In this document: positions 49,479-64,000 of the stretch, one piece after another
How the letters are laid out: every line of letters begins with the position of its first letter
How positions within the stretch are numbered: the stretch's first letter is position 1
NCBI RefSeq assembly: GCF_004801295.1
Contig: NZ_SSOC01000003.1
Location: 124,001 to 188,000 of the forward strand
Direction of reading: 5' to 3'
Source: Pseudothauera nasutitermitis
GTDB lineage: Bacteria > Pseudomonadota > Gammaproteobacteria > Burkholderiales > Rhodocyclaceae
DNA: 64,000 bases
Position numbers and translations under genes: made by a program
Notes under the pieces: generated by a model
What the model saw: only the letters and a program-made list of their open reading frames with translations
Databases searched by the model: none
What the model was told of the DNA's origin: nothing

Positions 49479-50021
49479 ATGGACGACATCGATTTCTTCG
49501 GGCTGCGCGAACTGTTCACCCGCAACCGCATCCTGTTGTGCTTCAACGGGCCGATCTCGCGCAGCCTGATCGAGGAGATCGGCAACGCGCTGAAGAACTA
49601 CCTGCACGCCGACAATGCCCAGCCCTCGGCGGCCATGGACGTGTTCGGCGCCTACATCGAGATGACCCAGAACATCCGCCACTACGCGCTGCGCCAGGGC
49701 TACGGCGAGGCCGAAAGCTCGGCCACCATCCTGGTCGCACGCGACGACGGCGGCGCCTACGTGGTGCAGGCCGGCAACGTGGTGGAAACCGCCGACGGCG
49801 AGCAGCTCACGGCCCGCGTGGGGCAGTTGGCCGGGCTGGACAAGGCTGCCCTCAAGGCCGCCTACAAGGAACAGCTGCGCCGCCCGCGCGACGAGGCCGC
49901 CAGTTCCGGCGCCGGCCTCGGGCTCATCGACATCGCGCGCAAGTCTTCCCGCCCGCTCGCCGCACGGCTCATGCCGATGCCGGACGGCAAGGCGTTCTTC
50001 AGCCTGCAGGCCGTCATCTGA
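49479..50021 (+). CDS. siaB: SiaB-family protein kinase
   Basis: A 180-residue kinase of the histidine-kinase-like ATPase fold that phosphorylates SiaC on a Thr or Ser. Conserved stretches are NGPISRSLIEEIGNALKNYL (about 23-42), EMTQNIRHYA (about 61-70, the ATPase N-box) and SSGAGLGLIDIARKS (about 146-160, the G-box). It starts 18 bases after siaA. With SiaA as phosphatase it sets the phosphorylation level of SiaC. Confidence 0.92.
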   Translation: MDDIDFFGLRELFTRNRILLCFNGPISRSLIEEIGNALKNYLHADNAQPSAAMDVFGAYIEMTQNIRHYALRQGYGEAESSATILVARDDGGAYVVQAGNVVETADGEQLTARVGQLAGLDKAALKAAYKEQLRRPRDEAASSGAGLGLIDIARKSSRPLAARLMPMPDGKAFFSLQAVI

Positions 50022-50049
50022 CGATCCATGACGAAGTACAATTCCGACC

Positions 50050-50433
50050 ATGACCACGAGTTTCAATATCCCGCCCAGCCAGTCCACCCCGGCCATCTCG
50101 GCCGATTGGGACGCTGGCGTACTGGCCATTTCCGGAGACTCCTACCCGGAAAACTCCTTCGACTTCTTCACCGCCACCATCGAATGGATCGAGTCCTTCC
50201 TGGCCGCCTCAGGTAATCGCGCGCTGCGCCTCGATCTCAGCCTGGTGTATATGAACACCAGTTCGGTCAAGGCCATGATGGACATCTTCGACCTGCTCGA
50301 AGAGGCCCACGCCAAGGGGCGCGCCGTCTCCGTCGACTGGTACTACGATCCGCGCAACGAGCGCGTCGAAATACTCGCCGAAGAGTTCCGCGAAGACTGC
50401 AGCTTCCCGTTCAACATCACCGCGCGGAACTGA
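50050..50433 (+). CDS. siaC: SiaC regulatory protein (DUF1987)
   Basis: A 127-residue protein of the SiaC family. Unphosphorylated SiaC binds and activates SiaD; SiaB phosphorylates it and SiaA removes the phosphate. GDSYPENSFDFF (about 29-40) is the family start, and YMNTSSVKAMMD contains Thr70, which lines up with the regulated threonine (Thr68) of Pseudomonas. The ATG is 28 bases after siaB. It is three bases ahead of siaD. Confidence 0.93.
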   Translation: MTTSFNIPPSQSTPAISADWDAGVLAISGDSYPENSFDFFTATIEWIESFLAASGNRALRLDLSLVYMNTSSVKAMMDIFDLLEEAHAKGRAVSVDWYYDPRNERVEILAEEFREDCSFPFNITARN

Positions 50434-50436
50434 GCG

Positions 50437-51246
50437 ATGAACGCGGAGCGCCAGCAGGCACGCGAGGAAGACGCTCTCCTGCGTGAACTCGACACCCTGC
50501 TGGCCGACCCCGCGCACGCCGCCGATCCGCTGCGCGCACCGCTCGCCGAGCTGCTCGCCCTGTACCGCCAGCAGCACGAGCGCATCGAACGCCTGGTACG
50601 CATCTCCGACGGCTACCACGGCATGAGCCGGCTGCATTCCGACAGCCTGGCCGACAAGTTCGACCGCCAGGTGCGCCGCCTGGAAAAGCTCGCGCGCATC
50701 TCCGACATGTACCAGAGCAACCTGCGCGAACTCACCGAGGCCCTGCGCGAAGCCTCGTTCAAGGACCCGCTCACCGAACTGGGCAACCGGCGCTACCTCA
50801 TGGAGCGCCTCAGGGAAGAATACGAACGCTCGCGCCGCAAGGAACTGCCGCTGTGCGTGGCCATCCTCGACGTGGATCACTTCAAGCGCATCAACGACGC
50901 CCACGGCCACGACGTCGGCGACGAGGCGCTGCGCCGCGTCGCCGACGCCCTGCGCCACGCGATCCGCCAGTACGACACCGTCGGGCGCTGGGGCGGCGAG
51001 GAATTCCTCATCCTGTTCCCGGAAACCCGCATCGACGAAGCCCTGCACACCGCCGAACGGGTCCGCACGGCCATCGGCGCCATCCACATCGAATCGCCCG
51101 ACGGCGGCACCACCTTCCCGCTTTCCGCCAGCCTGGGCATCACCGAGCGCCAGCCCGACGAGGCTGTGCTGCTCGCCGTCACCCGCGCCGACAACGCCCT
51201 GCTGGCCGCCAAGCGCGCCGGACGCGACCGCAGCGTGGTGCTCTGA
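50437..51246 (+). CDS. siaD: SiaD diguanylate cyclase
   Basis: A 269-residue soluble diguanylate cyclase. The N-terminal helical stalk (about 5-105) is the SiaC-binding region, and the GGDEF domain (about 110-265) has an active GGEEF site near residues 187-191 and an RxxD I-site (RQYD) five residues before it. Dimerisation is stabilised by SiaC in Pseudomonas. Three bases separate it from siaC, and it ends the four-gene module. Confidence 0.94.
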   Translation: MNAERQQAREEDALLRELDTLLADPAHAADPLRAPLAELLALYRQQHERIERLVRISDGYHGMSRLHSDSLADKFDRQVRRLEKLARISDMYQSNLRELTEALREASFKDPLTELGNRRYLMERLREEYERSRRKELPLCVAILDVDHFKRINDAHGHDVGDEALRRVADALRHAIRQYDTVGRWGGEEFLILFPETRIDEALHTAERVRTAIGAIHIESPDGGTTFPLSASLGITERQPDEAVLLAVTRADNALLAAKRAGRDRSVVL

Positions 51247-53955: not shown

Positions 53956-55998
53956 TCAGCGCGGATCGCCTCCGGCCGGCAACTGCGGATAGCGCACGAA
54001 ATCCACCAGGTCCTGGATCTCGCGCGGCGGCGGCCGGGTGCACAGGCTGACTGCCACGATGGTGGCGAAGCCCAGCGGCACGCCGAAGGCACCGGCGGCG
54101 ATCGGGTTGATGCCGAACCAGGCGTTGTCCATCGACCCGCCGAAGAAGGCGTGGGTGCTGGCCAGGTAGTACAGCGTGACGCCCAGGCCGGCCAGCATGC
54201 CGGCGATGGCGCCGGGCCGGTTGGCGCGCTTCCAGAAGATGCCCAGCACCAGCGCCGGGAAGAAGGCCGCGGCGGCGATCGAGAAGGCCATGCCGACCAT
54301 GAACAGGATGTGGTCGGGGCGCAGCGAGGCCACCCAGGCCGCCACCACCGCCACCACCAGCAGTTGCGACTTGGAGATCATCAGCCGGCGGTGTGTGGAC
54401 GCCTTGGGGTTGATGACCTTGTAGTAGAAGTCGTGGGACAGCGCGTTGGAGATGGTCAGCAGCAGGCCGTCGGCGGTGGACAGCGCGGCAGCCAGCCCGC
54501 CGGCGGCCACCAGCCCGGCCACCACGTAGGGCAGGCCGGCGATTTCCGGGGTGGCCAGCATGATCACGTCGGTGTCGATGGACAGTTCCGCCAGTTGCAG
54601 CACGCCGTCGCCGTTGAGGTCCTCGATCTTCACCAGCCCGACCTTGCCCCACGAGGCCACCCAGGCGGGCAGTTCGGTGAGGCTGGAGCCCACCAGGTTG
54701 CTGTACACCTCCCACTTGGCGAACACCGCGTAGGCCGGCGCGGTGATGTACAGCAGCATGATGAAGAACAGGCTCCAGAACGCCGAATTGCGCGCCTCCA
54801 CCACGCTGGGCGTGGTGTAGTAGCGCATCAGGATGTGCGGCAGCGCGGCGGTGCCGACCATCAGCACGAACACCAGGGCAATGAAGTTGTTGCGCGCCAC
54901 GGCGGACGCCTCGGGCGAGTTGCCCGGATGCGCCTCCGCGTGGCGCGGCGGCGGGCGCGCGCGCTCCAGCGCGTGCTGGCGCTCCTTTTCCCAGCGCGCG
55001 CGCGCTTCTTCCACGGTGCGCGGCAGATCGCGCAGCGTGCGTTCGAGCAGGGCGATCTCGCGCGCCGGCGCGTTGTTCAGGCGCAGCGCGTTGAGCCGTT
55101 CGATCAACGCCGCGCGCTCGGCCTCCAGCGACACCGGCAGCTGTTCGATCTTGTGCGCATATTCCTCCGCCCGCTGGCGGTACTGGTGGCGCACACCGAT
55201 TTCCGCCGGGTCGGTCAGCAGTTCGGACTCGCGCTCGCCGATCTGGCTGAGCACCGAACCGTACACCGCCGGCGGCACCGGGACGCCGGTGACCTTGTAG
55301 GACAGGATCACCACCGGCACCAGGTAGGCGATGATGAGAATCACGTACTGCGCCACCTGGGTCCAGGTCACCGCGCGCATGCCGCCCATGAAGGAGCACA
55401 CCAGGATGCCCGCCAGGCCGATGAACAGGCCGATCTCGAATTCCACGCTGACGAAGCGGCTGGTCACCAGGCCCACGCCGTAGATCTGCGCCACCAGGTA
55501 GACGAAGCTGGCCAGCACGGCGGCGAACAGGCCGACCACGCGGGCAAAGTTGCCCTGGTAGCGCTCACCGAGAAAATCGGGAATGGTGTATTGGCCGAAC
55601 TTGCGCAGGTAGGGCGCGAGCAGCAGCGCCACCAGCACGAAGCCGCCGGTCCACCCGGTGACGAAGGCCAGCCCCTCGAAGCCGGAGAAATACAGCATGC
55701 CGGCCAGCCCGATGAAGGTGGCCGCGCTCATCCAGTCGGCGGCGGTGGCCATGCCGTTGAACAGCGCGGGCACGCGGCGCCCGGCCACGTAGTATTCGGT
55801 GACGTCCGAGGTGCGGCTCATCACCCCGATGCCGGCGTAGATGGCGATGGTGGCGAACAGGAAGACGTGGCCGATGGCGGCCTGCGACATGCCCAAGAAT
55901 TCGCCGATGGCGAGCAGCAGCACGAAGGCGATGAAGCTGCCGGTGTACCAGCTGTAGTAGCGGCGCAGCTGCCGGTTGAAGCGGTCTCCGGCGCTCAT
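53956..55998 (-). CDS. Large Na+/solute symporter (VC_2705 subfamily) with coiled-coil insert and EF-hand-like loop
   Basis: A 680-residue SSS-family transporter, probably for acetate or another short acid. About 13 helices are split by a hydrophilic insert (about 245-370) that is strongly helical and charged. A loop near residues 456-468 reads DLNGDGVLQLAEL, a canonical EF-hand calcium site. The core has GMATAADWMSAATFIGLAG, typical of ActP-like carriers. Both additions are longer than in ActP. Its ATG is 28 bases after the exonuclease-fusion gene, so it belongs to the same operon as the sensor genes and perhaps responds to them. Confidence 0.88.
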   Translation of the reverse strand: MSAGDRFNRQLRRYYSWYTGSFIAFVLLLAIGEFLGMSQAAIGHVFLFATIAIYAGIGVMSRTSDVTEYYVAGRRVPALFNGMATAADWMSAATFIGLAGMLYFSGFEGLAFVTGWTGGFVLVALLLAPYLRKFGQYTIPDFLGERYQGNFARVVGLFAAVLASFVYLVAQIYGVGLVTSRFVSVEFEIGLFIGLAGILVCSFMGGMRAVTWTQVAQYVILIIAYLVPVVILSYKVTGVPVPPAVYGSVLSQIGERESELLTDPAEIGVRHQYRQRAEEYAHKIEQLPVSLEAERAALIERLNALRLNNAPAREIALLERTLRDLPRTVEEARARWEKERQHALERARPPPRHAEAHPGNSPEASAVARNNFIALVFVLMVGTAALPHILMRYYTTPSVVEARNSAFWSLFFIMLLYITAPAYAVFAKWEVYSNLVGSSLTELPAWVASWGKVGLVKIEDLNGDGVLQLAELSIDTDVIMLATPEIAGLPYVVAGLVAAGGLAAALSTADGLLLTISNALSHDFYYKVINPKASTHRRLMISKSQLLVVAVVAAWVASLRPDHILFMVGMAFSIAAAAFFPALVLGIFWKRANRPGAIAGMLAGLGVTLYYLASTHAFFGGSMDNAWFGINPIAAGAFGVPLGFATIVAVSLCTRPPPREIQDLVDFVRYPQLPAGGDPR

Positions 55999-56026: not shown

Positions 56027-58201
56027 TCAGTACTTGAGCCTCGCGTAGTAGGTCTTCTCGGCGGCCTCGCGCGCCTCGCGCAGCGTGCGGATGCCGCGCT
56101 CGGCGAGTAGCGGGATGAGCTTGATGAGCACCTCGGCGGTGACCACGGCGTCGGCCAGCGCGGTGTGCCGGCCCTCGTTCTTCAGGCCGAAGCGCTGGGC
56201 GATGGCGTCCAGGCTGTGCGATTCCTGGTTGGGATGCACCACCGCCGAGAGCAGCAGGGTGTCGAGCACCGGCTGGTCGAAGGCCAGCCCGGTGGAAGCC
56301 TCCTTGAGCTGCAGGAAGCGCATGTCGAAGGCCGCGTTGTGCGCCACCAGCACGGTGTCGGCGGAGAACGCATGGAAGGCCGGCAGCACCTTCTCGATGG
56401 GCGGCTGGCCGCGCAGCATCTCCGGGGTGATGCCGGTGATGTCCACCGCCTGGCGCGGCATCGGCCGGCGCGGGTCCACCAGCTGCTCGAAGGATTCCTG
56501 GCGCAGCAGCTTGCCGTTGAGCACCCGCGTGGCGCCGATCTGCACGATCTCGTCGCCTTCAGAGGGGTTCAGCCCGGTGGTTTCGGTATCGAACACCGTG
56601 TAGGCCAGTTCGGTGAGCAGGCGGTCGTCCAGGCCGTGGGCGCGCTCGGACCACGAGAACAGGTCGAAGTCGTAGTATTCCGGGCGCCCGGCACGCAGGC
56701 TGTCGCCGGCGTCGGGCTGCTCCTGCGGCACCGCCGCCGGCAGCAGGATGCGGAAGAAGGCGCGGTGGCGCACCTTCTCACGCTCCAGCCACATCTCGCC
56801 GCCATGGCGGTCGATGACGTCGCGCACCGCCAGCGGGCTGTTCTCCCCGGCGAAGCGCATCGGCTCCAGTTCCCAGCTCATCACCGTCTCGGTGCTCATC
56901 GCCTGGCCGGACCAGATCAGGTCCAGGTGCACCAGACGGCCCGAACCGGTCAGGCGGAAGCGCACCTCGCGTACCTCGAATTCGTCCGACAGGCGGCTGG
57001 CCAGGTAGGTGAGCGCCTGCAGCAGCGAAAAGCTGTCGACGCGCATCCACAGGCTTTCGTCCACTTCCTCGACCTTGGTGGGCAGGCCCAGCGCAGCTTC
57101 GATGCGGCCCTGCACGGCGGAGATCAGGTCGGCACCCAGCATGTCCTCCAGCGGCCAGCGCGACTTCAGCGTGTCGGCGAACTCGGTGGCGGCGCCGTCC
57201 AGGCGGGCGCTCATGGCCTGCACCTCGTCGCGGATGACCTTGCGGAAGCGCTCGCGCAGTTCGTCCTGCAGATCCGGGTAGTCGAGCATCTCGGCGGCCG
57301 CGCGCACGTTGGCCAGCGATGCCCGGTTGCCCTCGGTGAGCGTGTGGATCATCTCGTCGCGGCGCGATTCGCTCTCGAAATCGCGGGTGATGTTGTCCAG
57401 CAGCAGGATGAAGCCGGTGACCTCGCGCGCGCCCTCTCCGCCTTCCTCCCCTTCGCCGCCCGACAGCACCGGCGACATCTGCACGCGGATCAGTTGGCCG
57501 CCGCGCAGCGCGGTGACGAAGTTGGCCACCGCCTGCCCGCCAGGGCGGCGCAGGCGCTGCTGGATGGTTTCCAGCGCATGGGCGATCAGGTTGCGCTCGA
57601 ACACCGCGTAGATCGAGCGCCCCAGGCCGATCAGCTCGCCGCCGCCGGCCACCCCGGGCGCCTCGGAAAGCGCGCGGAACTGGGCGCGCGCGCGGTTGTT
57701 GTAGAGCAGGATGCGGCCATCCAGGTTACAGACCACCACGCTCTGGGTGAGCTCGGACATGAGCGCCGCGAGGCGGTTCTTCTCTTCCTCGACACGGCCC
57801 TTGGCGCGCTCGATCTGCGCCTCCACGTCGTCCATCATGCCATCGCGCTGGCGGGCCAGTTCGTTGGCCACGCCGACCACCTCGCACACCTCCGGCGGGC
57901 CGGACGGTTCGACGCGGAAATCGCGGTTGGCGCCGAGCATCAGGCGCAGCTGCTCGCCCAGGCGCTCCAGCCCTTTCACGTACTGGCGGAACAGGTTGCG
58001 CACCACGGCCACGCCCAGCACGAAGCCGAAGGCGGTGACCAGAGTGCCCAGCGGCAGATGGGGCACCACCGCCTGGATCAGCATGTCGCGCTCGGCACCC
58101 CGGGATTCGAACCAGATCAGCGCGGCGGTGAGCAGGAAAGGCCCGGTCATCAGCAGGCCGAGCACCACCACCGCGAGGATGAAGCGGGTGCGCGCCGACA
58201 T
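56027..58201 (-). CDS. Kinase-like sensor fused to a DnaQ-type 3'-5' exonuclease
   Basis: A 724-residue protein of unusual architecture: two N-terminal helices (about 7-30 and 52-70), a HAMP-like and coiled region (to about 150), a PAS-like domain (about 150-285), a degenerate histidine-kinase region (about 290-490) whose H-box His-Glu-x-x-x-Pro is missing (LTEGNRASLANVRAAAEML stands there), and a C-terminal DEDDh exonuclease (about 535-700: VFDTETTGLNP, VAHNAAFDMRFL, HTALADAVVTAE). The nuclease residues are all present. It lies between the symporter and a response regulator, four bases from the latter. The function is unknown; a signalling or nucleotide-degrading role is inference. Confidence 0.85.
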   Translation of the reverse strand: MSARTRFILAVVVLGLLMTGPFLLTAALIWFESRGAERDMLIQAVVPHLPLGTLVTAFGFVLGVAVVRNLFRQYVKGLERLGEQLRLMLGANRDFRVEPSGPPEVCEVVGVANELARQRDGMMDDVEAQIERAKGRVEEEKNRLAALMSELTQSVVVCNLDGRILLYNNRARAQFRALSEAPGVAGGGELIGLGRSIYAVFERNLIAHALETIQQRLRRPGGQAVANFVTALRGGQLIRVQMSPVLSGGEGEEGGEGAREVTGFILLLDNITRDFESESRRDEMIHTLTEGNRASLANVRAAAEMLDYPDLQDELRERFRKVIRDEVQAMSARLDGAATEFADTLKSRWPLEDMLGADLISAVQGRIEAALGLPTKVEEVDESLWMRVDSFSLLQALTYLASRLSDEFEVREVRFRLTGSGRLVHLDLIWSGQAMSTETVMSWELEPMRFAGENSPLAVRDVIDRHGGEMWLEREKVRHRAFFRILLPAAVPQEQPDAGDSLRAGRPEYYDFDLFSWSERAHGLDDRLLTELAYTVFDTETTGLNPSEGDEIVQIGATRVLNGKLLRQESFEQLVDPRRPMPRQAVDITGITPEMLRGQPPIEKVLPAFHAFSADTVLVAHNAAFDMRFLQLKEASTGLAFDQPVLDTLLLSAVVHPNQESHSLDAIAQRFGLKNEGRHTALADAVVTAEVLIKLIPLLAERGIRTLREAREAAEKTYYARLKY

Positions 58202-58204
58202 GGC

Positions 58205-58576
58205 TCAGTGCTCCGCCAGCAGGCCGCGTACCTTCTCCACCAGATCCTTGGTGGAAAACGGCTTGGTCATGTAGGCGTCCGCCCCCATCGCCAGGCCCTT
58301 GGCCACCTCGGTGTCACGCCCCTTGGCGGTGAGCATGAGGATGCGCACGCCCTTCAGCGCCGCGTCCGATTTCACCTCCTGACAGACTTCGAAGCCGCCC
58401 TTCTTGGGCATCATCACGTCGAGCAGCACCAGGTCGGGCTGCTCGGCACGGATGCGCGCGACCGCCTCCTCGCCGTCGCTGGCCACGGAAACCTCGTAGC
58501 CTTCGCGCTTCATCAGGAATTCCAGGGAAATGACGATGTTCTGCTCGTCGTCGACGATCAATATTTTCTTGGTCAT
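58205..58576 (-). CDS. Single-domain response regulator (CheY-like)
   Basis: A 123-residue receiver domain with acidic pocket VDDE (about 8-11), acceptor Asp53 in VLLDVMMPKKGG, Thr near LTAKG and Lys in KPFS (about 103). It has no output domain. It is directly downstream of the CrbS-like transporter-kinase (20-base gap), its probable phosphodonor, and three bases ahead of the exonuclease fusion, a possible partner. Confidence 0.92.
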   Translation of the reverse strand: MTKKILIVDDEQNIVISLEFLMKREGYEVSVASDGEEAVARIRAEQPDLVLLDVMMPKKGGFEVCQEVKSDAALKGVRILMLTAKGRDTEVAKGLAMGADAYMTKPFSTKDLVEKVRGLLAEH

Positions 58577-58596
58577 GTTTGCCTCTCTCCCGCTCG

Positions 58597-61365
<2,769 letters not shown>

Positions 61366-61378
61366 CCGTCCGTTCTCC

Positions 61379-61576
61379 TCAGCGTGCCCCGCGCTCGACG
61401 ATCCAGGCCACCAGCGCGATCAGCGCGGCCCACACCGCGAATACATAGACGTACAGCAGCGGAAAGCCGAAGGCCAGCTCCAGCCGGTCGAACAGCGACA
61501 GCACCGGGTAGTTGAACAGCAGCATGCCGGCCAGGAAGACCGTCACCAGCCGTTGTCCCGCAAGCCCTTTGCGCAT
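61379..61576 (-). CDS. Small two-helix membrane protein ahead of the symporter-kinase
   Basis: A 65-residue protein with two hydrophobic segments (about 8-24 and 36-58). The second contains AFGFPLLYVYVFAVWAALIA, resembling the short DUF3311/DUF4212-type partners often encoded before Na+/solute symporters. ATG at 61576 is six bases after AGGAGG. It precedes the CrbS-like gene by 13 bases, so it may be a subunit of that transporter-kinase. Confidence 0.75.
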   Translation of the reverse strand: MRKGLAGQRLVTVFLAGMLLFNYPVLSLFDRLELAFGFPLLYVYVFAVWAALIALVAWIVERGAR

Positions 61577-61683
61577 CACCCGCCTCCTGATGTGACGCTG
61601 CCCTCGATGGCGCCGGCCTGGGCCGGCGGCCGTGCCGCTCGTTCGGCGGCATCCATGCCGGGCACGTGGTCATTGGCCTTCCG

Positions 61684-61907: not shown

Positions 61908-63878
61908 TCAAGCGGACTGTTTCAACTGATCCAGGATCGCCGGATTCTCGAGGGTCGACGTATCCTGGGTGATCTCCTCACCCTTCGCCAGCTGTCGCAG
62001 CAGGCGTCGCATGATCTTGCCGGAACGGGTCTTGGGCAGGTTCTCGCCAAAGCGGATGTCCTTGGGCTTGGCGATCGGGCCGATTTCCTTGCCGACCCAG
62101 TTCTGCAGTTCCTTCACCACGGCCTTGGCTTCCTCGCCGGTGGGGCGCGGGCCCTTGAGCACCACGAAGGCGACGATGGCTTCGCCGGTGACATCGTCCG
62201 GACGGCCCACCACGGCGGCCTCGGCCACCTTCTCATGGGCCACCAGGGCCGATTCGATTTCCATCGTGCCCATGCGGTGGCCGGAGACGTTGAGCACGTC
62301 GTCGATGCGGCCGGTGATGGTGAAGTAGCCGGTGTCCTTGTCGCGGATCGCGCCGTCGCCGGCCAGGTACAGCTGGCCCTGGAAGTCGGCCGGGTAGTAG
62401 GACTTCTTGAAGCGCTCGTCGTCGCCCCACACGGTACGGATCATCGACGGCCACGGGCGCTTGATGACCAGGATGCCGCCCTGGCCGTTGGGCACCTCGG
62501 TACCGGTCTCATCGACCACCGCGGCCTGGATGCCGGGGAAGGGCAGCGTGCACGAACCCGGCACCAGCGGGGTGACGCCCGGCAGCGGGGTGATCATGTG
62601 GCCGCCGGTTTCGGTCTGCCAGAAAGTGTCCACGATGGGGCAGCGGCTACCGCCGACGTTCTCGTAGTACCACTCCCAGGCCGCCGGGTTGATCGGCTCG
62701 CCGACCGAGCCGAGCAGGCGCAGGCTGGACAGGTCGTACTTGGTGGGATGCACCGCCGGGTTGTTGTCGGCCGCCTTGATCAGCGAACGGATGGCGGTCG
62801 GCGCGGTGTAGAAGATGCTGACCTTGTGGTCCTGGATCATCTTCCAGAAGCGGCCGGCGTCCGGGTAGGTGGGCACGCCTTCGAAGACGATCTCGGTGGC
62901 GCCGCAGGCCAGCGGACCATAGGTGATGTAGGTGTGGCCGGTGACCCAGCCGATGTCGGCGGTGCACCAGAAGACATCCTCGGGCTTGATGTCGAAGGTG
63001 TACTTCATGGTCAGCACGGCCTGCAGCAGGTAGCCGCCGGTGGAATGCTGCACGCCCTTGGGCTTGCCGGTGGAACCGGAGGTATACAGCAGGAACAGCG
63101 GGTGTTCGGCCTCGACCCATTCGGGTTCGCTGGTTTCCGGCTGGCCGGCGACCACGTCGCTGTACCACTTGTCGCGCCCGGCGACCACGGTGACGTCCGC
63201 GCCGGTGCGCTTGACCACCACCACGTTCTTGACCGATTCGCAGCCGCCCAGCGCGATGGCTTCGTCGGCGATGGGCTTCAGCGGCAGCGCCTTGCCGCCA
63301 CGGAACTGGCCGTCGGCGGTGATCACCGCCACCGCCTGGGTGTCGGTGATGCGGTCGCGCAGCGCCTGGGCGGAGAAGCCGCCGAACACCACCGAGTGGG
63401 TGGCGCCGATGCGCGCGCAGGCCTGCATGGCCACCACGCCTTCGATGGACATCGGCAGATAGATGACCACGCGGTCGCCCTTCTTGATGCCCAGCGCGCG
63501 CAGGCCGTTGGCCAGCTTGCACACGCGGGAGAGCAGATCCTTGTAGGTGACGCGGGTGACGTCGCCGTTGTCGGCTTCGAAGATCAGCGCGACCTTGTCG
63601 CCCAGGCCCTTCTCGACGTTGCGGTCGAGACAGTTGTGGGAAACGTTGAGCTTGCCGTCGGCGAACCACTTGAAGAACGGCGCGTTGCTCTCGTCGAGCA
63701 CCTGGTTGAACGGCACCTTCCAGTCGAGCAGTTCACGCGCCTGACGGGCCCAGTAGCCCTCGTAATCGCGTTCGGCCTCCTTGCACAGCGCCAGGTAAGC
63801 ATCCATGCCGGAAACCGCGGCGTTCTTGACCACTTCATCGGACGGGTAGTACAGACGGGCTTGCTGCTCGTTCGACAT
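61908..63878 (-). CDS. acs: Acetyl-CoA synthetase
   Basis: A 656-residue ligase that converts acetate to acetyl-CoA via acetyl-AMP. [16 protein letters not shown] (near residue 265) is the AMP-binding core, [13 protein letters not shown] (near 415) is the acetate-pocket segment with the bulky Trp that separates Acs from PrpE, and the catalytic lysine lies in [13 protein letters not shown] near 610, the usual acetylation site. ATG at 63878 follows GGAGAGGA. Two terminators lie downstream. Together with the CrbS-like kinase this is the acetate-use locus. Confidence 0.96.
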
Positions 63879-64000
63879 ATCTTCCTCTCCTAACCTAACA
63901 GGTTGATTCTGCCCTCGTTTTCCGGGGCTGCTGGATGTTTCCAGTCTGGGGTCCGATTCGCCGTACGACACGCGAACTGCGCGTATTGAAGAACATCTAT
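63879..64000. other. Upstream region of acs
   Basis: No gene is seen. AACCT-GTT-AGGTT forms a small hairpin just ahead of the ribosome site. I could not assign a promoter, and regulatory sites may extend past the window end. Confidence 0.3.

What the first reader, a model, noticed from the sequence alone, without database searches (positions are those of the whole stretch)
56027..61576. Acetate-switch locus with a kinase-like/DnaQ exonuclease fusion and a free receiver domain
Seen: the CrbS-like transporter-kinase (58597-61365), a lone receiver (58205-58576), a membrane PAS/degenerate-kinase/DEDDh-exonuclease fusion (56027-58201) and a symporter (53956-55998) are all on one strand with gaps of 28 bases or fewer. 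The fusion keeps all exonuclease residues but has lost the H-box, and its ATPase region looks degenerate. Known: CrbS kinases normally signal to a LuxR-type CrbR regulator. Inference: the receiver could control the membrane-anchored nuclease, giving an output that degrades an oligonucleotide or nucleotide signal, instead of transcription. I know of no description of such a pathway.
Basis: partly seen in the sequence, partly recalled or inferred. Interest (0 to 1): 0.75.

Follow-up and report, generated by a model that had tools for sequence, protein, structure and literature searches.

The report
Acetate sensor wired to membrane nuclease
In many environmental bacteria an acetate-type sensor kinase, a free receiver protein and a membrane protein that joins a disabled kinase to an intact nucleic-acid-trimming enzyme are kept together as one gene set, which suggests that the sensor controls a nuclease and not, or not only, a gene switch.

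Summary
On the minus strand lie acs, a small membrane protein, an SLC5-type sensor kinase, a lone receiver (REC), a 724-aa fusion (two TM helices, PAS, degenerate kinase, DEDDh exonuclease) and a VC_2705-type symporter. The set recurs: 53 of 62 named loci with enough flank have kinase + REC + fusion; among 276 genomes of the class, kinase (14) and fusion (13) share 11. Exonuclease residues are kept in all 80 fusions checked; the H-box histidine is E/D/Q/N in all 80. The kinase is not CrbS proper: it lacks the PAS and C-terminal REC of hybrid CrbS, and no regulator scores like CrbR in own genome plus 60 relatives. REC stays by the kinase without the fusion in 3 of 4 genomes, and by the fusion without the kinase in 5 of 7. 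Most likely the kinase phosphorylates REC, which docks on the pseudokinase as DivK~P does on DivL and gates the exonuclease; docking and substrate are inferred. A standalone exonuclease in the MxtR/ErdR (CrbS/R) regulon is in print (P. putida pp_0353), and a CBS-DUF294 gene accompanies both kinds, so the nuclease link is not new; the receiver-pseudokinase-exonuclease wiring is, as far as my searches reach.

The parts
61908..63971 (-). acs, acetate-CoA ligase (likely true start ATG about 63878)
   Evidence: TIGR02188 E 7e-295; ORF list
61379..61579 (-). small protein (66 aa, two TM stretches by eye) directly upstream of the kinase, 13-base gap; similar genes recur upstream of the kinase
   Evidence: ORF; cluster 9, 15 loci; 't' in the gene-order strings
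58597..61365 (-). SLC5-STAC-type sensor histidine kinase, non-hybrid, no PAS found (922 aa); STAC is named from a home-made motif and recall
   Evidence: HisKA E 7e-19, HATPase_c E 1e-30; residues 8-539 match solved chain 10ed ('histidine kinase') E 8e-76; motif
58205..58576 (-). stand-alone receiver domain with D9, D10, D53, T83, K105 (123 aa)
   Evidence: PF00072 E 4e-29; alignments
56027..58201 (-). fusion: helices 3-32 and 36-90 (TM), HAMP/coiled coil, PAS 154-270, DHp-like 272-344, CA-like 352-490, DEDDh exonuclease 533-695 (724 aa)
56111..56599 (-). exonuclease domain of the fusion (residues about 535-697; D538, E540, D626, H679, D684)
   Evidence: PF00929 536-692; conserved residues
53956..55998 (-). 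VC_2705-family sodium/solute symporter (680 aa)
   Evidence: TIGR03648 E 1e-234

Best explanation
This is a variant acetate-switch module in which the DNA-binding regulator CrbR has been replaced, or joined, by a membrane nuclease output. An SLC5-type kinase senses acetate-linked metabolism and phosphorylates the free receiver encoded 20 bases downstream. Phosphorylated receiver docks on the DHp-like part of the pseudokinase in the fusion, which cannot itself be phosphorylated on the lost His, and the conformational change, joined with PAS and membrane input, turns the attached 3'-5' exonuclease up or down. The nuclease and the CBS-DUF294 nucleotidyltransferase that often lies beside it act on the same kind of substrate: an RNA 3' end or a nucleotidylated molecule that tunes acetate/pyruvate metabolism. 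Shown: gene set, domain make-up, intact and lost residues, conservation, lack of a regulator scoring like CrbR. Inferred: the signal, phosphotransfer, docking, gating, substrate.
For: Kinase+REC+fusion in 53 of 62 named loci with enough flank; 11 shared genomes of 14 and 13 in 276 (P 2e-15 if genomes were independent). Order can change (REC-fusion-kinase in L198, L199, L201, L203) with the set kept. REC lies beside the kinase without fusion in 3 of 4 genomes (L263-L265) and beside the fusion in 5 of 7 decidable genomes without this kinase (G011, G012, and degenerate REC in G107, G230, G319). REC phospho-residues intact (Thr or Ser) in 108 of 111 RECs aligned; the 3 degenerate ones (L066, L205, L208) all lie in loci without the kinase. 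DEDDh residues kept in 80 of 80 (79 of 79 for motif III), H-box His lost in 80 of 80. Foldseek's first 50 hits include WalK (rank 1), VicK, NifL-NifA and DivL; DivL is a pseudokinase reported to read DivK~P (PMC4211667: abstract, outline, section 18). CrbR profile: 0 of 12 genomes that have only the window-type kinase reach 225 bits.
Against: No direct evidence that REC binds the fusion: a coevolution test on 95 triads showed no enrichment, but its positive control (kinase DHp) failed too, so it has no power. In G057 the kinase overlaps a LuxR-type gene (30% to a CrbR) and there is no fusion. Fusions without REC or kinase nearby: 6 of 62 named loci and L048, L058, L068, L194, L195, L200 among the unnamed, some of them second copies; G024 and G250 have the fusion but neither partner seen. 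AlphaFold pTM 0.41: relative domain placement is unreliable.
Confidence: 0.45

Rival explanations
1. The receiver serves only the kinase (phosphate sink or tuning domain, as the REC of hybrid CrbS may do); transcription is controlled by an unlinked regulator in trans, and the fusion is just a co-transcribed target gene, like pp_0353 in Pseudomonas, driven by its own PAS and membrane input.
For: REC stays with the kinase when the fusion is missing (L263-L265). In P. putida the exonuclease gene is a downstream target, not a signalling partner (PMC9927547, sections 7 and 8). A LuxR-type gene overlaps the kinase in G057. Some fusions stand without REC.
Against: REC also stays with the fusion in 5 of 7 decidable genomes without this kinase. 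Lone REC shows only weak matches, 22-33% over most of the domain, to the C-termini of hybrid CrbS-type kinases, so it is not a recently detached hybrid REC. No regulator scoring like CrbR in own genome plus 60 relatives.
Confidence: 0.25
2. The pseudokinase heterodimerises with the active kinase (as RetS does with GacS; recalled) and tunes it; the exonuclease has a separate job.
For: Pseudokinase and kinase are neighbours in 53 of 62 named loci; a pseudokinase version of a kinase with a physiological effect is reported (ChrS, PMC9491836: search listing only).
Against: Fusion and REC persist together in G011 and G012, where no such kinase was found; the exonuclease is the best conserved part of the fusion (0.78 majority identity against 0.62-0.68 for DHp, CA, PAS); the pseudokinase profile is WalK/VicK-like.
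Confidence: 0.12
3. The nuclease is an eraser for the neighbouring CBS-DUF294 nucleotidyltransferase: DUF294 attaches a nucleotide to a protein or RNA end and the DEDDh domain removes it, making a reversible mark set by acetate signalling. (Concerns the substrate; compatible with the best explanation.)
For: CBS-DUF294 gene in 39 of 52 named loci with both flanks, within 1.5 kb downstream in 35 of 65 with enough downstream flank; exonuclease and CBS-DUF294 in one polypeptide (L210, L211: sequence by eye and BLAST; L264: Pfam, exonuclease part weak, E 0.03); standalone exonuclease + CBS-DUF294 in hybrid-crbS loci with acs and a symporter (L277, L279). DUF294_C is tabled with GlnD/GlnE (PMC3710099, passages).
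Against: In the window's own clade the DUF294 gene is elsewhere (own C1:195560, up to 55-58% to linked ones). I know of no DEDDh enzyme that removes a nucleotide from a protein (recall). pp_0354 deletion had no pyruvate phenotype where pp_0353 deletion did (PMC9927547).
Confidence: 0.15

Closest known systems
CrbS/CrbR (MxtR/ErdR) acetate switch
   Same: Sensor half 41-49% identical to 13 hybrid CrbS-type kinases compared; linkage to acs and symporters; linkage to an exonuclease and a CBS-DUF294 gene
   Different: No PAS and no C-terminal REC in the kinase, different transmitter core (26-30% to the same 13), no regulator scoring like CrbR, lone REC and pseudokinase-exonuclease instead. The hybrids are called CrbS-type by architecture and CrbR neighbour, not by comparison with the V. 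cholerae or Pseudomonas proteins themselves
pp_0354/pp_0353 operon of P. putida (CBS protein + RNase_T exonuclease; ErdR binds its promoter)
   Same: RNase_T-family exonuclease next to a CBS-domain gene in acetate/pyruvate metabolism
   Different: Standalone, no pseudokinase reported. I did not have the pp_0353 sequence; its likely kin by gene context (L277, L279) and the window genome's own C11 gene form an exonuclease lineage apart from the fusions
DivL-DivK (Caulobacter)
   Same: Single-domain receiver plus a PAS-bearing pseudokinase of the DHp-CA fold
   Different: DivL has Tyr for His (recalled) and no enzyme output; it acts on the kinase CckA. REC-fusion docking here is untested
PolC/DnaQ-type DEDDh exonuclease domains (2p1j, 9qpc, 1j53)
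   Same: All five catalytic residues, fold, 35-42% identity to PolC exonuclease
   Different: Membrane-anchored fusion, not part of a polymerase

Membership tests
CrbS/CrbR two-component system | SLC5 transporter-like domain joined by STAC to a histidine kinase | tested here: met
   Sensor half aligns with 13 hybrid CrbS-type proteins at 41-49% and over residues 1-657 in the class search; residues 8-539 match chain 10ed. STAC itself rests on a home-made motif near residue 615
CrbS/CrbR two-component system | Hybrid kinase with PAS after STAC and C-terminal REC | tested here: not met
   Pfam: 4 of 4 hybrids scanned have PAS_7, HisKA, HATPase_c and Response_reg; the window kinase and 3 of 3 of its kind have HisKA and HATPase only, plus a weak SSF in one
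CrbS/CrbR two-component system | LuxR-type CrbR partner | tested here: not met
   Profile of 7 CrbRs: best in own genome 183.7 bits (C5:424938, another kinase gene close by); none above 206.5 in 61 genomes. 15 of 16 hybrid-kinase genomes in the class sample reach 225.9 or more, 7 of them by construction; so do 2 genomes without a hybrid hit (G258, G319). The scores leave no clean gap
CrbS/CrbR two-component system | CrbR binding box upstream of acs | tested here: inconclusive
   No match to patterns that I drew from Table 4 of PMC5715377; the strict pattern is absent from the whole window, so its absence near acs says little
Functional histidine kinase (fusion) | H-box histidine | tested here: not met
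   E/D/Q/N in 80 of 80
DEDDh (RNase_T/DnaQ) exonuclease | D-E-D-H-D catalytic residues | tested here: met
   80 of 80 for motifs I-II, 79 of 79 for motif III
DivL-like receiver-reading pseudokinase | DHp-CA fold without the phosphorylatable His | tested here: met
   Fold by model and Foldseek (4q20 at rank 42), His lost; lack of activity itself not testable here
DivL-like receiver-reading pseudokinase | Binding of a phosphorylated single-domain receiver | not testable with these tools
   Only single proteins could be modelled; coevolution test without power

The most novel reading that the evidence does not exclude
A two-component system whose direct output is not transcription but a membrane-anchored 3'-5' exonuclease: acetate sensing sets the phosphorylation of a free receiver, which is read by a pseudokinase fused to the nuclease, so that a metabolic signal directly controls decay of RNA ends or of a nucleotide mark written by a CBS-DUF294 transferase.
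Probability: 0.38. Interest if true: 0.85.

Novelty: new variant of a known kind. Interest (0 to 1): 0.62.

Why it matters
Receiver outputs are mostly DNA-binding domains or second-messenger enzymes (recalled); a receiver that gates a nuclease through a pseudokinase would be a new signalling output and a further case of 'reversed' receiver-to-kinase information flow. It would also give the acetate switch, where a nuclease gene of unknown purpose is already known to matter for pyruvate growth in P. putida, a form in which the nuclease sits in the sensor's own operon, making its role directly testable in denitrifying and activated-sludge Betaproteobacteria.

Tried and rejected
The lone REC as a recently detached C-terminal REC of hybrid CrbS: rejected, best matches weak (24-33% for the six with E below 1e-4). 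The fusion as ortholog of the standalone exonucleases beside hybrid crbS: not supported, separate lineage with the own C11 copy, but deep branches are weak and long. REC-pseudokinase coevolution by APC-corrected mutual information on 95 triads (Neff 55): uninformative, positive control failed. CrbR box scan: nothing found, patterns home-made. Own C5 LuxR gene as CrbR: unlikely, not excluded; 33.6-37.4% to the seven CrbRs, which share 36.6-74.1% among themselves, so identity alone does not decide; another kinase gene lies close by. Pfam on the window's N-terminal part alone: no hit.

Known flaws: alignment A2 row 2 (L037:9461-11002) was mis-cut and carries the exonuclease in place of the N-terminus, 1 of 19 rows; it entered. 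A1 row L067 holds only the N-terminal half. The CrbR line at 225 bits was drawn after seeing the scores. One of the 80 named fusions (L072) was left out of the residue count for a frame break; the window made the 80th row. Three RECs (L205, L208, and L206 by eye) were added by hand because BLAST with the window's REC missed or barely found them.
Full report
WHAT IS THERE. On the minus strand of the window, in transcription order: acs (61908-63971), a small protein with two TM stretches (61379-61579), an SLC5-type histidine kinase (58597-61365), a lone receiver (58205-58576), the fusion (56027-58201) and a symporter of the VC_2705 family (53956-55998). Gaps from kinase to symporter are 20, 3 and 28 bases, so one transcript from the kinase on is likely (inference). 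The genome holds 4.72 Mb in 20 contigs; its nearest named kin are Thauera and Azoarcus (fusion 74-76%).

THE FUSION. Pfam sees only the exonuclease in the window protein (E 3e-37). A profile of the N-terminal part matches VicK (4i5s, E 1e-11), a histidine kinase (9m08, E 3e-5) and WalK (one of 19 rows was mis-cut). AlphaFold with 55 sequences gives mean pLDDT 78.7 but pTM 0.41: single domains credible, their arrangement not. Foldseek ranks WalK first (E 1e-19), then VicK and PolC exonuclease; ThkA (rank 11), NifL-NifA (14) and DivL (42) are among the first 50. Across 79 named fusions plus the window the catalytic D538, E540, D626 are invariant (80 of 80), H679 and D684 in 79 of 79; the H-box histidine is E 61, D 14, Q 4, N 1. 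So it is a pseudokinase with an intact nuclease. By majority identity the exonuclease is its best kept part (0.78), then PAS 0.68, CA 0.65, DHp 0.62, TM 0.38 (95 triads).

THE MODULE IS REAL. Of 80 named loci, 62 have at least 4 kb upstream of the fusion: REC within 1.5 kb in 56, kinase in 53, both in 53, REC alone in 3, neither in 6. In 61 genomes (own plus 60 relatives) 31 have a long fusion match, 29 the kinase, 28 both; fusion only G011, G012, G024; kinase only G057. In 276 genomes drawn from the class, 21 ring with the fusion profile, 13 of them with both N-terminal part and exonuclease; a kinase of this type is in 14, both in 11; fusion only G140 and G250, kinase only G072, G115, G155. 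In L198, L199, L201 and L203 the order is REC-fusion-kinase, so the set survives rearrangement. Several genomes carry further fusions without REC or kinase nearby (L048, L068, L194, L195).

THE RECEIVER IS THE MIDDLE PIECE. Where the kinase occurs without the fusion, REC (58-68%) lies beside it in three of four genomes (L263-L265); in the fourth, G057, the kinase instead overlaps a LuxR-type gene, and a REC (60%) lies about 5 kb off. Eight genomes have the fusion or its relic but no kinase of this type: REC lies beside it in G011 and G012 and, degenerate, in G107, G230 and G319; not in G024 and G250; G140 cannot be judged, its contig ends 124 bases upstream. In G107, G230 and G319 the nuclease residues are lost as well (sequences; one of them, L205, scanned with Pfam: no RNase_T hit). 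Phospho-residues of REC are intact in 108 of 111 (99 exact, 9 with Ser for Thr); the 3 others lie in loci without the kinase.

IT IS NOT CrbS/CrbR. Described CrbS/MxtR is a hybrid with PAS and C-terminal REC (PMC7918813 and PMC9100948, passages). Four hybrids scanned have that make-up; the window kinase and three of its kind do not. Against 13 hybrids the sensor half is 41-49% identical and the transmitter core 26-30%: the sensor looks CrbS-related, the transmitter does not. A profile of seven CrbRs found next to hybrid genes scores at most 206.5 bits in own genome plus 60 relatives. In the class sample 15 of 16 hybrid genomes reach 225.9 or more (7 by construction; one hybrid is cut by a contig end), 0 of 12 genomes that have only the window-type kinase do, 2 of 2 that have both kinases do, and so do G258 and G319, which have no hybrid hit. 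Scores shade into each other between about 200 and 226, so a diverged CrbR is not excluded.

THE NUCLEASE LINK IS OLDER THAN THE FUSION. The CBS-DUF294 gene lies in 39 of 52 named loci with both flanks; acs in 19 and a symporter in 34 of the same 52. Hybrid loci L277 and L279 carry acs, symporter, CBS-DUF294 and a standalone exonuclease. L209 has acs, a symporter-like gene, a standalone exonuclease, CBS-DUF294 and a CbrA/CbrB-like pair; L210 and L211 have exonuclease and CBS-DUF294 in one protein. The window genome has a second exonuclease next to a DUF294 gene on C11 and, elsewhere, the kin (up to 55-58%) of the linked DUF294. In print: PMC9927547 (abstract, passages, sections 7 and 8) reports that ErdR binds the promoter region of pp_0354 (CBS protein), that pp_0353 downstream (RNase_T) forms an operon with it, that homologs lie next to actP and yjcH in P. 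aeruginosa PAO1, and that the pp_0353 mutant is delayed on pyruvate; the authors guess at mRNA decay. Papers that describe the fusion were not found with the terms in the held library, which lacks most subscription papers.

MECHANISM. Best reading: kinase to REC to pseudokinase to exonuclease. Precedent: DivL, where loss of kinase activity turned the transmitter into a reader of DivK~P (PMC4211667, section 18). Steps shown: parts, residues, conservation. Steps inferred: signal, phosphotransfer, docking, gating, substrate. The coevolution test could not help. Rivals are listed in their field; the strongest is that REC only serves the kinase and the nuclease is a co-regulated target as in Pseudomonas.

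VERDICT. A real, broadly kept variant of the acetate switch with a plausible new kind of output; direct gating about 0.4 likely.

Noticed in passing
window 49479-51246 (+): DUF6272 protein, SiaC-family protein and GGDEF cyclase in a row: resembles the SiaABCD c-di-GMP partner-switch module (module name recalled; families).
   Followed up: no
L205:8729-11193, L208:8770-11246: Degenerate receiver + pseudokinase with a dead nuclease remnant, in both loci directly after two genes that look by eye like imuA-imuB (L205 also has a dnaE2-like gene downstream): a fossil or re-purposed pair.
   Followed up: partly
L210:9528-11687, L211:7918-10092, L264:6177-8270: Exonuclease-CBS-DUF294 in one polypeptide (exonuclease part of L264 only weakly recognised); supports a joint function of the two genes.
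   Followed up: partly
L045:3018-3692, L089:15198-15869 and six other loci: A second, standalone exonuclease-like gene near the CBS-DUF294 gene; in the two read, the first motif is degenerate (DVATAG, DIVSSG).
   Followed up: partly
L209:1-19901: acs, symporter-like gene, standalone exonuclease, CBS-DUF294, CbrB-like and CbrA-like genes followed by what look by eye like prpB and prpC: a propionate/acetate super-cluster.
   Followed up: no
L293:8094-11488: Window-type kinase overlapping a LuxR-type gene, without the fusion in that genome; the one case of a possible transcription partner seen.
   Followed up: yes
L068:8868-9914: Mini-fusion (355-aa frame): TM part joined directly to the exonuclease, most of the kinase-like part missing.
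   Followed up: no
L213:8371-11059 (own genome C11): The window genome also has a DUF294-exonuclease pair reminiscent of pp_0354/pp_0353; no kinase of this type, REC or acs was found in its 20-kb stretch.
   Followed up: partly
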